From Candidatus Hydrogenedentota bacterium (lineage in GTDB: Bacteria > Hydrogenedentota > Hydrogenedentia > Hydrogenedentales > JAEUWI01), in the NCBI GenBank assembly GCA_016182605.1, contig JACPGE010000076.1, positions 1 through 54,977 on the forward strand: 54,977 nt of DNA. The letters run 5' to 3'. Within the stretch, counting starts at the first letter, position 1. Each line of letters opens with the position of its first letter. Shown in pieces: positions 2,678 to 8,880 of the stretch. The notes under the pieces were generated by a model. The model did no database searches and was not told where the DNA came from. It saw only the letters and a program-made list of their open reading frames with translations. Made by a program: the position numbers and the translations under genes.

Positions 2678-2822
2678 CCGGAAGGCGGCGGGCGCATTTG
2701 GCGTTGGTGTGAAGGGGGCCGGGGAAGGGGGTGTTTGGGGCTTGCCGGATACAAGATGCTTGCCAGAACGCCCGAACAAGAGTATCTTAAGGGTGGCGAC
2801 CTTGGGCAGGAATGTGCGCGCA

Positions 2823-3749
2823 ATGCCGGAGCCTATTGACACGTCCGCTTTGGAGCGGAACCGTATCCTCGACTATATGCAGCAGTGCGATGGGCTGTCA
2901 CGCGATTGGCGTCAGCTTCGGGAGCTCGTGTCGAGCTATCCCGGGGAAGACGGCGACCGGAAACAGCACGACATGCAACTGGTGTATGTGAAGGGGCGCA
3001 TCTCGTGCGACTACCCGATCGTGCAGGCGTGGCGCAGCGGCGAGTACGCCATCGGATCGGACATCCATGCCGTCGTGGCGGATCTTTCGGACTTGCAGGA
3101 GATGGCCGCGCGGCGCAATGGCGCGGCGCAGGTATTTTCGGCGCGCTGGGATCGGGTGAACGGGCGGCTGAGCGCGGCGCAGAAAGTGCTTTCGGACACG
3201 CACGAGAAGCTGGAGCGCGGCGTGCCCGTGCAAGTACCGGAAACGTTCCGGTACACCACGCGCCGGATCGTGATTCCGTGGAAGAAGATCTTCAAGTATG
3301 GCGCGGTGGCGGCGACGGTGACGATACTGGCGGGCACCGCGTGGGTGTTGCGCAACTTTCTGGGTGTGGGCGCGCCCGGCGAGGGGGACGGGATCGCGTT
3401 TGCGATAGACATGCCGCCGCGCGAGCAGGTGGAATTGTGTCTGAAGACCATGAGTGAGGCGATGGAAGCCGATAATCTCGATCGGTTCATGACGATCTTT
3501 GCCGATGACTTCACCGTGCCCGATGGCAGCGGGAAACGGGAGTTGCGCGCGCTGCTGCAAACGGCGCGTACCGCCGGCGAATTCGCGCGATCGCGCGTCG
3601 ACATCAGCGAAGCGCAGTTCAATTACCTCGACGAAGGCATTCGGGTGAGTCCGCTGAAGACCACGGGAGAAGACTTCAGCATGACGTTTTACTTGCTCTT
3701 CTCGCTGCGGAACGGGAAATATCTCGCCGTTGCGGGCGATGAGCTGTAA
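2823..3749 (+). CDS. membrane-anchored protein with NTF2-like C-terminal domain, unknown function
   Basis: 308 residues from the ATG at 2823 (MPEPIDTSALERNR); an AGGA lies 11 bases upstream. Residues about 1-155 form a cytoplasmic, mostly helical region with no recognised motif. A single membrane segment follows basic residues (KKIFKYGAVAATVTILAG). The remainder (RDQVELCLKT-like start, MEADNLDRFMTIFADDF, then a beta-rich end) has the length and helix-then-sheet pattern of a SnoaL/NTF2-like domain, which would face the periplasm. It is convergent with the ECF-sigma fusion gene, 11 bases away. The domain suggestion is tentative and no function can be assigned. Confidence 0.6.
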   Translation: MPEPIDTSALERNRILDYMQQCDGLSRDWRQLRELVSSYPGEDGDRKQHDMQLVYVKGRISCDYPIVQAWRSGEYAIGSDIHAVVADLSDLQEMAARRNGAAQVFSARWDRVNGRLSAAQKVLSDTHEKLERGVPVQVPETFRYTTRRIVIPWKKIFKYGAVAATVTILAGTAWVLRNFLGVGAPGEGDGIAFAIDMPPREQVELCLKTMSEAMEADNLDRFMTIFADDFTVPDGSGKRELRALLQTARTAGEFARSRVDISEAQFNYLDEGIRVSPLKTTGEDFSMTFYLLFSLRNGKYLAVAGDEL

Positions 3750-3760
3750 GACGGCATCGA

Positions 3761-6550
3761 CTAGTACGCCAGTTCCTCCTCCATGTCTTCCCCTTCTCGC
3801 AAATCCACGTTCAGGGTTTCCACGGTGCTGACGCCGGGTGCGGGCGCGGGGTATAGGGCGAGTTGCCAGGCGCCGGGGGGCAGGCCGGTGACGTCGATGT
3901 GCCCGGAGCTGCTGGTGTGGCCGTTGTAGTAGAAGGCAGGATCGCCCGCCTGCGCGAGGGTGTAGTAGAGGCCGGGCTGGGCTTTGCCGTCTGCCGTGAC
4001 CGCGATCCGCAGCGCGGTATCGTAGTCTTGAAACTGCACCGTCAGTTCGCGATCTTTCGCTTCCCCCAAACTTAACGCAAGACACTGCGTCCATTCATCG
4101 TCGTCCGGCTGGGACTTCGGCAGTGCGGCGACGAGCGTGGCGCCTTCCCGGGGCGCGTGCTCCAGGATAAAGCGGCCATCGCCATCAGTGCGGGTACCGG
4201 CCAGGGGCCGTGGTGTGGCGCCCGTGAAATCGAGGAGGAGACTCAGCGAGGCGCCTTCGACCGGGGCGCCGTTGTGCAGGACTTGACCGGTGATGCGCGC
4301 GCCCGGGTCCAGCACGACGTTCAACGGCGCATCCACCGTGTTCACGGGGACGATGGTGTGCGTGTAGTTGTAGTGCCACGCCGTGAGCTGCTTGAGGGCC
4401 GGGTCAAAGGCGGCGATCTCAAAGTGTCCCTGCGCGCCGCTTTTTGCCACGGCGAGACGATCGCGATCATGCGCGTCGGGCAGTGGCCCGTCGAAGAGCA
4501 GCGCGCCCACGACGGCCTCGCCCTGCGTGTCGACGACCTCTCCCCGCAGGGGCGTGCCCGGTTTCAGGGCCACGAGCAGATCCGAGAGGGTTTGACCGGC
4601 AGCCACGGTGACGGGGATTTTGCCTTCCACGTAGCCGGTTGCACGCACGGCGAGGTTGAATTCGCCCTGGGGGAGATCGGTTACGGTGAAGTGTCCCTGC
4701 GCGTTCTCCTCGGGATGCCAGTCCCACTGCACACTGTCGGGATGCGAATCGCTCACGGGCACGGCGCGGTAGACTTCGAAGCGGGGTATGGGACGCCGGG
4801 TTACCGCGTCGACCACAGCGCCCTCGATGCCGCCGCGGGGCGCCATGACAAGGGTGCACGAATCGCTTCCCGCCGTCACGCGGTTACCGCCGATGCTGGA
4901 ATAGGCGCGGTGGGCGGTCTGGAGGAGGTACTCGCCCTCTTCCAGCCCCTCGATCATGAACGTGCCATCGGGCCCGGACCACGCCGAGTCCGTGTTGGTG
5001 TATCCGGGCAGGAGGTGGGCCTCCACGCGCGCGTGGTCGATGGGCTGTCCATCCGGATCGACGACGATGCCGGCGATAGTGCGCCCCACGAGGTCGGGAT
5101 AGACCAGGCGCAGGCCCTGCACGGTCTCGTTGGCGGCCAGTTCAATGGACGTGTTCACGTCGCGCCAGTCTCCCTCGCCGAGTTGCACGTGAAACTTGAA
5201 CGCGCTCGCGTGGAGGCCTTGCACAGTGAAGCGGCCCGCGGCATTGGCGCGCGCCGTGGGCAGGCCGAAATGCCAGGGCGTCACCGGCGCAGCCATAATC
5301 TGGGCTTCCGGCAGGGCCTGGCCCGCAGCGTTCACGACGACGCCGGAGACTTCGCCGGCATAGGCGACGAGATCCACGCGGTAGTGCCGGCCCGCTTCCA
5401 CCGTTTCGAGCACGGTTTCAGCGGTGCGCAGATCGGGTGAGGAGCGCCTGGCCGCGACGTAGTAGAGGGGCGCGGGTTCCACGTCGATGGCGTAGTTGCC
5501 GCCGGCATCGGTGAGTGCGGCGCCACCACCCTGGAAGCCGGCGCCGTTCGAGACGTCAATCTGGATGCGTTCCACGGGCAAGTCCGCCGTCGAGCGTATG
5601 TGTCCGTGGATACGTGCGAATCCGTCGGCGAGCGGGCGGGAATCCGCGGGTGGGTCTGGCGGGGCAGTGATGGGGGACTGCGGTGTTTGTTGCGCCGGGG
5701 TGGCGGGGATCGTTGCGGGAGAGGGCTGGGGCGTGCCGGGCGCTGCGGTGCTGACTATGACCGGTGTTGCGTCAGGCGCCGGAGGGGCGTTGTGCGTGGT
5801 GTAGCGATTGAAGGCGAATCCCGCGCCCAGCCCCAGGAGCAACAGCGGCAGGAGCACGCGCGTGGCGGCGAAGGGAATGGAGAAGGGAATGAAAGACGCC
5901 GCGGCGGGCGGTCCGGAGAGGGCCAGTTTGCCCAGCGCTGCCGTGAGGAGGGGCGGCGTGGCCCCGGCCTTCGCGTTGGCAAGGAGTTCAGTGAGGAGGA
6001 GGGCGGACAGGGTGATGCCTTTGCGTCCCAAGTGGGCGCGGATTTCGTCCACACCGCGCGCGATGCGGCTGCTGAGGGTGGTGCGCGGAATCCCGAGCAC
6101 GGCGGCGCATTCCTGGTGCGATTTGCCTTCGAGGAAATGCAGCACGATGGGCCCGCGCAGGCGGTCAGGGAGGGCGTTGATCGCCGCGTCGATGTGGGGC
6201 TGCAAGTCGTCCCAGGAAACGGTGTCGGCGTGGGGGCGTGTGCGGGCGAAGGCGTCTTCGCGGTGGCGCCTGCGGGACTCGGAGCGCAGGCGGTTGATCG
6301 CGCGGTTCGTGGCAACGCGATGGAGCCATGCGCCGAGGGAACGCGCGTTTTTGGGGTGCAGGGCGGCCAGTGCGAGAAAGCATTCCTGGGCCACCTCTTC
6401 GGCCTGGCCGTCGCTGCCGAGGACGCGGCGGCACGCAGTGTAGGTGAGGGCGGAATAGCGGTGGACGAGTTCGGCGAAGGCCTCGGCGTTGCGATCCTGG
6501 CGCCAGCATTGGAGCAGGACGGCATCGGTGGCATGGTGGAGGTCGGTCAT
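3761..6550 (-). CDS. ECF sigma factor fused to a membrane segment and carboxypeptidase-regulatory-like repeats
   Basis: 929 residues. Residues 20-95 are sigma region 2 (AFAELVHRYSALTYTACRR, AEEVAQECFLAL, WLHRVATNRAINRLR). Residues 122-175 are region 4 with its helix-turn-helix (LPDRLRGPIVLHFLEGKSH, IPRTTLSSRIARG). A hydrophobic segment at about 231-249 (RVLLPLLLLGLGAGFAF) is followed by a P/A/T-rich linker and then several beta-sandwich carboxypeptidase-regulatory-like repeats to the end, with the usual GxxxDxxGxF pattern (ANAAGRFTVQGL, SGPDGTFMIEGL, GTRTDGDGRFILE). An ECF sigma normally ends near residue 180, so this is a fusion in which the extracytoplasmic half could sense a signal and hold the sigma domain at the membrane. 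The AAGGAAG ribosome binding site supports the start. No separate anti-sigma gene is next to it. Confidence 0.85.
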   Translation of the reverse strand: MTDLHHATDAVLLQCWRQDRNAEAFAELVHRYSALTYTACRRVLGSDGQAEEVAQECFLALAALHPKNARSLGAWLHRVATNRAINRLRSESRRRHREDAFARTRPHADTVSWDDLQPHIDAAINALPDRLRGPIVLHFLEGKSHQECAAVLGIPRTTLSSRIARGVDEIRAHLGRKGITLSALLLTELLANAKAGATPPLLTAALGKLALSGPPAAASFIPFSIPFAATRVLLPLLLLGLGAGFAFNRYTTHNAPPAPDATPVIVSTAAPGTPQPSPATIPATPAQQTPQSPITAPPDPPADSRPLADGFARIHGHIRSTADLPVERIQIDVSNGAGFQGGGAALTDAGGNYAIDVEPAPLYYVAARRSSPDLRTAETVLETVEAGRHYRVDLVAYAGEVSGVVVNAAGQALPEAQIMAAPVTPWHFGLPTARANAAGRFTVQGLHASAFKFHVQLGEGDWRDVNTSIELAANETVQGLRLVYPDLVGRTIAGIVVDPDGQPIDHARVEAHLLPGYTNTDSAWSGPDGTFMIEGLEEGEYLLQTAHRAYSSIGGNRVTAGSDSCTLVMAPRGGIEGAVVDAVTRRPIPRFEVYRAVPVSDSHPDSVQWDWHPEENAQGHFTVTDLPQGEFNLAVRATGYVEGKIPVTVAAGQTLSDLLVALKPGTPLRGEVVDTQGEAVVGALLFDGPLPDAHDRDRLAVAKSGAQGHFEIAAFDPALKQLTAWHYNYTHTIVPVNTVDAPLNVVLDPGARITGQVLHNGAPVEGASLSLLLDFTGATPRPLAGTRTDGDGRFILEHAPREGATLVAALPKSQPDDDEWTQCLALSLGEAKDRELTVQFQDYDTALRIAVTADGKAQPGLYYTLAQAGDPAFYYNGHTSSSGHIDVTGLPPGAWQLALYPAPAPGVSTVETLNVDLREGEDMEEELAY

Positions 6551-6796
6551 GGGGGCTTCCTTTCGATATTCTACCCTTAAAACACCGCTGCGGCGGAAGT
6601 GGACGAAAGGGAGGGGTGCGGGGGTGCCACCCGCTTCGCGGATTCATCTTGGTGGATACGGGGGACCTGGGGCTTACGCCGCCAGGCTTTCGCTCCTTCG
6701 GAGCTGGGGCGGAGCGATTTTGTAGCGTGCATGGTGCGTTCAGGCGTTCTTGTAGAGGCGGGATCTTGACTGGCTTCTGGAACTGGTTTCGTTGGT

Positions 6797-6876
6797 TTCC
6801 GGGGACAGCCCCTCGCCGGTGTGGGATGGTGCCGCGGAATTGTGGTTTGTATCGCCGGCGGGGACAGCCCCCTTGG
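6797..6876. repeat. GGGGACAGCCCC paired repeat, copy 1
   Basis: Two GGGGACAGCCCC motifs (6801-6812 and 6860-6871), 59 bases apart, bracket a partly conserved core (tcgccggtgtgggatggtg). The same pair with the same spacing recurs at 8801-8880. Each motif can fold as a GGGG/CCCC hairpin. A single further motif lies at 6957-6968. This resembles a REP-like dispersed family. Confidence 0.6.
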
Positions 6877-6968: not shown

Positions 6969-6990
6969 TCGCCTACTACCTGTTAGCTGG

Positions 6991-7274
6991 GGTTCAGACG
7001 GGTACTTCGACGCGGAATGCCTACGCTCGGCGAGCGAAGGCCTACTTGGGTGGCGTGCCTAAAGGGTAGCGCGCTGCTCGCCGAGCGGCGTGATTGGGGT
7101 GAGTGTGCAAGAGTTAGCGCCATTCGGGAGAGGGTTCAGACGGGTACTTCGACGCGGAATGCCTACGCTCGGCGAGCGAAGGCCTACTTAGGTGGCGTAC
7201 CTAAAGGGTAGCGCGCTGCTCGCCGAGCGGCGTGATTGGGGTGAGTGTGCAAAAGTTAGCGCCATTCGGGAGAG
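6991..7274. repeat. 142-bp tandem duplication with internal hairpin
   Basis: Units 6991-7132 and 7133-7274 are directly adjacent and differ at only about three positions. Each unit carries a 12-base inverted pair, cgctcggcgagc and gctcgccgagcg, about 40 bases apart, so each can form a stem-loop. ORFs through it have no family features and restart in each copy, which argues against coding. The near-identity implies a recent duplication. Confidence 0.8.
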
Positions 7275-7331: not shown

Positions 7332-8708
7332 TCAGGGCGGGAGGGAGAGGTCGACTTCGTAGAAGCCTGGTGTGTCGAGGGTGAGTTCTTTCCAGACGCT
7401 GGCGATGGAATCGTATTGTGTGGGGGCATCTGCGTTGCGGCGGAAGCTCATCAGGGCGATCTTGTAGTGGCCCGGTTCTATGCCGTCGAAACGGAAGCGC
7501 GGGTCGGCCCCGAGTGTGATGTTGGCGATTTCCTGTGTGCGGAGTGCGACGGCTTCGTCGAAGGTCTTGGGGTCGATGTCGAGGTCGCCGGGAAGCAGGG
7601 AGACGATGGTGGAGTCGGTCTCGATGTAGCCGCTGGCCTGGCCAACAATGTGCACTGTGGGATCGAAGTTCACGGGCAGCATGGTGGTGGTGTCCACGGA
7701 GAGTTCGAGGGAGAAGTCTTGTTGCATGCCCTCGGGATCGCCGGGGTCGAGGCGAACGGTGACGGTGACCGGGCCGGGAGGCAGGTTGTCGATGGCATAG
7801 CTGCCGTCCACATCGGACATTGTCCCGATGCTGGGTGGCTCCATGCCGGTCGGGAGGGCCACTTCGATCTCTGCGCCGGGATGCGGCGTACCGGCGAGGG
7901 AGATGACGCCTTCGAGTCGCGCCGAAGTGCGCGGGAAATGGAAATCGAGCAGGCTGTTGACGCCGGGGTCCACAGTGAGCGTTTGTTCCATGCTGCGAAT
8001 CGCGTGCCCGGTGATGTCTGGTCCCGCACCTTCCGTAAGCAGGAGCACCGTGATCTCCCCGGGCGGAAGGAGGTCGAGCGCATAGGCGCCGTCTGGGCCG
8101 GTCACGGTTTCAAAGACTTCATTGGCGCTTTGTCCGGTGACGCTGGCTGTAACCTGCGCATTGGGTAGCGGCGTATCGTCGAAGTAGACCGTGCCCTTCA
8201 GTGCGGCGCTTCCCTGGAGCGTGATGGTGACGTGCGCGGTCTCTCCGGACCGCACCTGGACGACCGTCACGCGTGGCAGGAAGGGCGGACGGGAGGCCCA
8301 GAGTTGGATGCTGCCGGAGGGGATTCCAGTGATTTCGAAGCGTCCCATTTCGTCGGAGTAGGCGAGGGGAGGGCGATTTTCGTCGTTGGCGCCCACGCGG
8401 ATGGCGGCGTTGCCCACAGCGTCGCCTTTGAAGAGGACGCGCCCCTTGATGGTGGCGTCGGGGAGCGTGCCGTTCACGCTGGCGAGGGAGGCCGGATCCG
8501 GTGGAGGAGCCTGTGGCGGGTCTGTGGCGGGCGGGGGTGGGGCGGGGCGTTGCGTGGTTTCCACAACCGGCGTGTTGTCCGGGAGGCTGGGAGGCGTGCT
8601 TTCCCGGGGGTGTGGCGGGGTGGTGGGGCCGCGTTGGGTGGAGAGCAAAGCCACGAGCAGTGCCAGCAGCGCGCCCATGGCGGCCAATAGGATGAGGCGT
8701 TTGCTCAT
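7332..8708 (-). CDS. membrane-anchored carboxypeptidase-regulatory-like domain protein
   Basis: 458 residues. An N-terminal anchor (KRLILLAAMGALLALLVALL) is followed by a P/T-rich linker to about residue 80, then four or so beta-sandwich repeats of the CarboxypepD_reg type, seen as ATIKGRVLFKGDAVGNAAI, ALKGTVYFDDTPLPNAQV and RLEGVISLAGTPHPGAEI, each with a DxxGxY/F turn (SDEMGRFEITGI, TGPDGAYALDL, SDVDGSYAIDNL). Such domains bind partners or carbohydrate rather than catalyse. The architecture equals the extracytoplasmic half of the ECF-sigma fusion upstream on the same strand, and the two may be related in origin or in function; that is inference from proximity and likeness. Confidence 0.75.
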   Translation of the reverse strand: MSKRLILLAAMGALLALLVALLSTQRGPTTPPHPRESTPPSLPDNTPVVETTQRPAPPPPATDPPQAPPPDPASLASVNGTLPDATIKGRVLFKGDAVGNAAIRVGANDENRPPLAYSDEMGRFEITGIPSGSIQLWASRPPFLPRVTVVQVRSGETAHVTITLQGSAALKGTVYFDDTPLPNAQVTASVTGQSANEVFETVTGPDGAYALDLLPPGEITVLLLTEGAGPDITGHAIRSMEQTLTVDPGVNSLLDFHFPRTSARLEGVISLAGTPHPGAEIEVALPTGMEPPSIGTMSDVDGSYAIDNLPPGPVTVTVRLDPGDPEGMQQDFSLELSVDTTTMLPVNFDPTVHIVGQASGYIETDSTIVSLLPGDLDIDPKTFDEAVALRTQEIANITLGADPRFRFDGIEPGHYKIALMSFRRNADAPTQYDSIASVWKELTLDTPGFYEVDLSLPP

Positions 8709-8800
8709 TTCATTGTTCCAGACGGCGCTCCGTTTTTGTGGCGGTGCGGTTCAGGAGGATACGGTGCAGCAGCCGCGCGCGGTTTGTCAACGCGGGTGGT

Positions 8801-8880
8801 TCCCGGGGACAGCCCCTCGCCGGTGTGGGATGGTGCTGCGTCATTGGAGATTGCAGCGCCGGCGGGGACAGCCCCCTGGG
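8801..8880. repeat. GGGGACAGCCCC paired repeat, copy 2
   Basis: Motifs at 8805-8816 and 8864-8875 with the same 59-base spacing as copy 1 at 6797-6876, sharing the flanks and the sequence tcgccggtgtgggatggtg. It sits between the divergent ends of the carboxypeptidase-regulatory-like gene and the SRPBCC gene. Confidence 0.6.

What the first reader, a model, noticed from the sequence alone, without database searches (positions are those of the whole stretch)
3761..6550. Sigma factor, membrane helix and sensor-like domains in one chain
A complete ECF sigma (regions 2 and 4) continues through a membrane segment into several carboxypeptidase-regulatory-like repeats. If the sigma half must be released to act, regulation would need proteolysis or a conformational signal across the membrane. 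No anti-sigma gene is next to it.
Basis: partly seen in the sequence, partly recalled or inferred. Interest (0 to 1): 0.6.

Follow-up and report, generated by a model that had tools for sequence, protein, structure and literature searches.

The report
Membrane-tethered sigma factor with β-sandwich ectodomain
One intact gene in a Hydrogenedentota bacterium joins a transcription-starting sigma factor, a membrane anchor and an outside-facing chain of β-sandwich domains, and at least 160 copies of the same design occur in about half of the phylum's sampled genomes, so it is probably a one-protein receptor that switches on genes from the membrane.

Summary
A single 929-aa ORF with a good Shine-Dalgarno encodes a complete ECF sigma (σ2 28-94, σ4 120-171), a conserved 44-aa juxtamembrane linker, one membrane segment (220-249), a Pro/Ala/Thr-rich stalk, and five to seven CarboxypepD_reg/CnaB-like β-sandwiches. 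It is neither frameshift nor misassembly. The same genome has nine further single-TM sigma fusions, and a profile across the σ4-linker-TM junction finds ≥160 copies in 35 of 68 Hydrogenedentota genomes. All 46 long members inspected have the TM at residue 216-246. Most of their sigma domains form a distinct clade (SH-aLRT 100) with planctomycete sigmas fused to multi-TM regions. No anti-sigma lies beside the gene: the genome's four zf-HC2 hits sit beside soluble ECFs, and the linker has no zinc anti-sigma motif. The best model is a one-component receptor-sigma held at the membrane and released by regulated intramembrane proteolysis (RseP, S41 and HtrA homologues are present), as shown for Pseudomonas putida IutY and proposed for Streptomyces ECF52. 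Proteolysis itself is inferred, not shown. This is a new, strongly expanded variant of a known kind: same plan, different phylum and ectodomain, and a conserved non-zinc linker in place of a recognisable anti-sigma domain.

The parts
6558..6561 (-). Shine-Dalgarno AGGA, 7 nt before the ATG
   Evidence: read from sequence
3761..6550 (-). whole fused gene, 929 aa
6269..6469 (-). sigma region 2 (residues 28-94)
   Evidence: PF04542 1.2e-12; closest solved chains are ECF sigmas
6038..6193 (-). sigma region 4 (residues 120-171)
   Evidence: PF08281/PF04545
5894..6025 (-). conserved juxtamembrane linker (residues 176-219), two predicted helices 183-192 and 200-211; G178, L186, L190, P199, L202 invariant in 16 main-lineage members; no zinc-type anti-sigma motif
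5804..5893 (-). single membrane segment (residues about 220-249)
   Evidence: hydropathy
5618..5803 (-). Pro/Ala/Thr-rich low-confidence stalk (residues about 250-311)
   Evidence: sequence; pLDDT about 30 to residue 300
5369..5611 (-). CarboxypepD_reg repeat 1
5174..5350 (-). CarboxypepD_reg repeat 2
4868..5080 (-). CarboxypepD_reg repeat 3
4565..4828 (-). CarboxypepD_reg repeat 4
4106..4294 (-). CarboxypepD_reg repeat 5
   Evidence: two further beta-rich units (about residues 665-748 and 846-928) in the model

Best explanation
It is a one-component transmembrane signalling protein. The N-terminal ECF sigma faces the cytoplasm and is kept at the membrane by its own TM helix; the conserved juxtamembrane linker probably folds against the sigma or the membrane and keeps it from RNA polymerase. 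The C-terminal beta-sandwich chain stands outside the cytoplasmic membrane and senses an envelope condition or binds a ligand. The signal exposes the flexible Pro/Ala/Thr-rich stalk to a site-1 protease (S41/Prc-like or HtrA-like); the shortened stump is cut in the membrane by RseP, and a fragment of about 23 kDa (sigma2-sigma4 plus linker) is released to start transcription. Shown here: the intact fusion, its conservation and constraint, the universal TM, absence of an adjacent anti-sigma, presence of the protease classes. Inferred: topology (with charge support), inhibition in the tethered state, cleavage, signal and target genes.
For: Intact ORF and domains. 46/46 long members have a TM at residue 216-246, and none has a second segment as hydrophobic as 1.8. 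Soluble ECFs of the same genome mostly end within 33 residues of sigma4 (one runs 126 on) while the fused ones run on for hundreds. At least 160 copies in 35/68 genomes of the phylum. Net charge is more positive on the sigma side of the TM (p=3e-6, n=46, from fewer acidic residues; K+R alone do not differ), fitting N-in/C-out. dN/dS in close pairs about 0.04-0.32 for sigma, 0.13-0.34 for linker+TM, 0.12-0.47 for ectodomain; pairs with saturated synonymous sites were scored as pN/pS only, up to 0.75 for one ectodomain. Four zf-HC2 anti-sigmas, all beside soluble ECFs. No partner-like neighbour family recurs, as expected of a self-contained module. RseP homologue with HELGH beside a dxr-like gene, S41 proteases, many trypsin-type (HtrA-like) proteases. 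Precedents with the same plan: IutY, cleaved by Prc and RseP (PMC5411451); ECF52 SCO4117 (PMC5826349); review PMC8999054.
Against: No cleavage site, protease or fragment is shown, and the proteases are general household enzymes not linked to the gene. K+R content does not differ across the TM. AlphaFold models are shallow (9 rows; pTM 0.37 and 0.46), do not render the TM helix and do not establish whether the linker docks on sigma. No ECF-type promoter upstream of 44 family members exceeds shuffles, so autoregulation is unsupported.
Confidence: 0.62

Rival explanations
1. ToxR/CadC-like action: the sigma works while still tethered. Signal-induced change or clustering of the ectodomain passes through the TM and linker and frees the sigma to recruit RNA polymerase at the membrane, without proteolysis.
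For: Same N-cytoplasmic effector, single TM, C-outside sensor layout as CadC/ToxR (general knowledge); the linker between sigma4 and TM is conserved, as expected if it transmits a conformational signal.
Against: The nearest architectural precedent, IutY, needs RseP and Prc (PMC5411451); I know of no sigma factor shown to work while anchored; the stalk looks unstructured, poor for passing a conformational change.
Confidence: 0.18
2. The extension is mainly structural or an envelope adhesin, and fusion to sigma only keeps the sigma low or membrane-localised; regulation happens elsewhere (expression, phosphorylation, turnover).
For: The ectodomain resembles stalk/adhesin domains and such domains are abundant in this genome (104 matches).
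Against: Retention of sigma plus TM in at least 160 copies with exchange of ectodomain type (CarboxypepD_reg in 36 of 42 scanned; STN in L084) looks like receptor diversification.
Confidence: 0.12
3. The sigma half is degenerate and no longer starts transcription.
For: None found.
Against: Sigma regions 2 and 4 pass Pfam thresholds in the window protein and match in all 42 members scanned; region-2 and region-4 residues are conserved among paralogues about 25-30% identical overall; sigma dN/dS is low, down to 0.04.
Confidence: 0.04
4. Frameshift or misassembly joining two genes.
For: None; the genome is a 130-contig assembly.
Against: Open frame without stop and the same junction in dozens of assemblies.
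Confidence: 0.01

Closest known systems
IutY of Pseudomonas putida (ECF243; sigma/anti-sigma hybrid; PMC5411451, PMC8999054)
   Same: Cytosolic ECF sigma, one TM, periplasmic C-terminal domain in one chain; no separate anti-sigma.
   Different: IutY has a periplasmic anti-sigma domain of the cell-surface-signalling (FecR) type and works with the TonB receptor IutA; here the ectodomain is CarboxypepD_reg/CnaB-like, with no TonB receptor adjacent, in another phylum and in up to 15 copies per genome.
ECF52 of Actinobacteria (SCO4117; PMC5826349)
   Same: Sigma, TM, Pro-rich stalk, extracytoplasmic C-terminal domain.
   Different: ECF52 has a zinc-finger anti-sigma domain before the TM and a carbohydrate-binding module; neither was found here.
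ECF48 and ECF53 (PMC8999054)
   Same: ECF fused C-terminally to TM segments acting as anti-sigma.
   Different: Actinobacterial, with zinc-type anti-sigma domain.
Planctomycete ECFs with C-terminal WD40 repeats (PMC8567305)
   Same: Expanded ECF families with long C-terminal extensions in another phylum.
   Different: WD40 repeats; no WD40 match here. Three planctomycete (Schlesneria) sigmas that group with this family carry multi-TM regions instead.
ECF41 (fused SnoaL_2 domain; PMC8999054)
   Same: On-board regulatory C-terminal extension.
   Different: Soluble SnoaL extension, no TM.

Membership tests
ECF (group 4) sigma factors | sigma2 and sigma4 present, no other sigma domains | tested here: met
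   solved relatives SigE/SigW/RpoE
ECF (group 4) sigma factors | Binds core RNA polymerase and starts transcription | not testable with these tools
   sequence conservation only
A named ECF group of the 2021 classification | Best match to a group-specific profile | not testable with these tools
   ECF group profiles not available; among the NCBIfam matches shown only the superfamily TIGR02937 is over its cut-off
IutY type (ECF243) | Sigma, single TM and extracytoplasmic domain in one chain | tested here: met
   (extracytoplasmic location inferred, charge support)
IutY type (ECF243) | FecR-like periplasmic anti-sigma domain | tested here: not met
   no FecR or STN match in the window protein; one relative, L084, has STN
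IutY type (ECF243) | Neighbouring TonB-dependent receptor gene | tested here: not met
   nearest neighbours are a CarboxypepD_reg protein, a SnoaL-like membrane protein and NDK; no receptor family recurs at other loci
IutY type (ECF243) | Activation by Prc and RseP cleavage | not testable with these tools
   protease homologues present
ECF52/ECF48/ECF53 | Zinc-finger anti-sigma domain between sigma4 and TM | tested here: not met
   no C..C or H...C..C motif in 46 members; no zf-HC2
ECF52/ECF48/ECF53 | Pro-rich stalk after the TM | tested here: met
   residues 250-311; P/A/T/S/E/Q 59% in 46 members
ECF52 | Carbohydrate-binding module | tested here: not met
ECF41 | SnoaL_2 extension | tested here: not met
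Planctomycete WD40 ECFs | WD40 repeats | tested here: not met
   not among the families listed

The most novel reading that the evidence does not exclude
A whole phylum uses an expanded set of single-protein transmembrane sigma receptors in which the conserved two-helix, non-zinc juxtamembrane linker is a new type of built-in sigma inhibitor or signal relay, and interchangeable ectodomains give each copy its own signal; sigma may even act while still anchored.
Probability: 0.27. Interest if true: 0.75.

Novelty: new variant of a known kind. Interest (0 to 1): 0.52.

Why it matters
Sigma factors fused to their own receptors are known from few cases, and only IutY has an experimentally characterised proteolytic mechanism according to the 2022 review PMC8999054. 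Here is a phylum where this layout is common (up to 15 copies per genome), with a conserved linker and exchangeable ectodomains. It makes testable whether a sigma can be controlled in cis without a recognisable anti-sigma domain, and offers natural plug-in modules for engineered membrane-to-promoter signalling.

Tried and rejected
Frameshift/misassembly: rejected. Zinc-type anti-sigma hidden in the linker: rejected. Conserved partner gene next to the family: no family recurs in more than 4 of 34 loci, and those that do are common types (simple length-based gene calling). Shared ECF-like promoter upstream of 44 members: no excess over shuffles. AlphaFold of the full protein and of residues 1-257: sigma domains, linker helices and beta-sandwiches appear, but domain arrangement is uncertain and the TM is unmodelled; Foldseek gives ECF sigmas and pilin/adhesin stalks. 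One origin of all fused sigmas: not rejected (p-AU 0.186); the C18 and C117 copies fall outside the main clade, so one or more origins remain open. Phage and plasmid records: only partial, sigma-domain matches. The phylum search could not be centred on Planctomycetota. Main classification papers (Casas-Pastor 2021, Jogler 2012, Wiegand 2020) are not in the library, so an existing group number cannot be ruled out.

Full report
What is there. ORF 3761-6550 (-) is a single open frame of 929 aa starting at an ATG with AGGA 7 nt upstream. Pfam puts sigma region 2 at 28-94, region 4 at 120-171 and five CarboxypepD_reg stretches in the C-terminal part. The closest solved chains are ECF sigmas SigE, SigW and RpoE. 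Hydropathy gives one membrane segment, about 220-249. Between sigma4 and this segment is a 44-residue linker; after it a Pro/Ala/Thr-rich stalk to about 311. AlphaFold models, shallow and of modest confidence, show the sigma helices, two linker helices (183-192, 200-211) and a chain of about seven beta-sandwiches, which Foldseek relates to pilin and adhesin stalk domains.

It is a family, not an accident. The genome (6.76 Mb; Hydrogenedentota by its nearest relatives) has 37 region-4 matches. Ten genes, ours included, are sigma plus one TM plus a long C-terminal part, and one (C43) is sigma plus several TMs. The soluble ECFs examined end 0-33 residues after sigma4, with one exception at 126. 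A profile of sigma4-linker-TM built from 16 members finds 160 matches at E<=1e-15 (my sum of the table) in 35 of 68 genomes of the phylum, up to 15 per genome, some in tandem; candidates scored per genome were capped, so this is a lower bound. All 46 long members examined have a TM of hydropathy >=1.8 starting at residue 216-246 and no second such segment. CarboxypepD_reg is found in 36 of 42 scanned; L084 carries an STN domain instead, others no known ectodomain, so the ectodomain is exchangeable while sigma and TM are not.

Ancestry and constraint. In a tree of 52 sigma domains, 24 fused sigmas plus three Schlesneria (Planctomycetota) sigmas fused to multi-TM regions form a strongly supported group (SH-aLRT 100); two other fused copies of this genome (C18, C117) fall with the multi-TM C43 protein outside it (quick method, long branches present, one origin of all fused copies not rejected, p-AU 0.186). 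In close pairs sigma, linker/TM and ectodomain are mostly under purifying selection, with sigma strongest in most pairs; pairs with saturated synonymous sites were scored only as pN/pS. G178, L186, L190, P199 and L202 of the linker are invariant in the 16 main-lineage rows; the two second-lineage copies lack the motif.

Regulation. No anti-sigma gene is adjacent. The genome's zf-HC2 matches number four and each lies next to a soluble ECF. No zinc-type motif is in any linker. No neighbouring family recurs in a way that suggests a partner. Net charge across the TM is more positive on the sigma side (p=3e-6), though K+R alone do not differ; with a sigma domain that must be cytoplasmic to work this fits N-in/C-out. 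An RseP homologue with HELGH motif beside a dxr-like gene, S41 proteases and trypsin-type HtrA-like proteases are encoded, which is permissive only.

Mechanism. The most likely reading is a one-component receptor-sigma: tethered and kept off RNA polymerase by membrane and linker, released by site-1 cleavage in the stalk and then RseP. IutY shows that the same plan can work this way (PMC5411451), and the same is proposed for ECF52 SCO4117 (PMC5826349). Action while tethered, ToxR/CadC-like, is the main rival. Neither is shown here.

Novelty. The kind is known (IutY, ECF48/52/53; PMC8999054). New, as far as the searched library shows (no paper holding ECF with carboxypeptidase regulatory-like, or sigma factor with Hydrogenedentota), are the phylum, the scale, the beta-sandwich ectodomains and the conserved non-zinc linker. 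Key classification papers were not available, so a group number may already exist.

Noticed in passing
window 7332-8708 (-): The gene upstream of the sigma gene, same strand, is an N-terminal TM plus Pro-rich stalk plus CarboxypepD_reg repeats: the same ectodomain design without a sigma domain. It may be a partner, a target or a relative that lacks the sigma.
   Followed up: partly
window 6990-7273: Tandem duplication of 142 nt (98% identical) in the gap between the two genes.
   Followed up: no
window 6793-6876 and 8797-8880: 84-nt repeat (88% identical) with GGGGACAGCCCC near both ends, upstream of both CarboxypepD_reg genes; looks like a dispersed intergenic element.
   Followed up: no
L057 5732-7414 (-) (G000:C43): Second type of membrane sigma: sigma domain followed by about five TM segments, 522 aa.
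   Followed up: partly
L061 2517-6942 (G000:C112): A soluble ECF gene followed on the same strand by a separate 999-aa TM + CarboxypepD_reg protein and ABC transporter genes: possibly a split counterpart of the fused design.
   Followed up: no
L084 6056-8137 (+): Family member with an STN domain in the ectodomain instead of CarboxypepD_reg; STN-like domains also occur in FecR/TonB signalling (general knowledge).
   Followed up: partly
L043 6186-11678, L086 2974-10732, L087 6199-12023, L088 5838-11946, L093 5836-9034: Tandem pairs of fused sigma genes, suggesting local duplication.
   Followed up: partly
window 2709-3749 (+): Convergent neighbour with one TM-like segment and a weak C-terminal SnoaL-like match; no relative of it recurs beside other family members.
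   Followed up: partly
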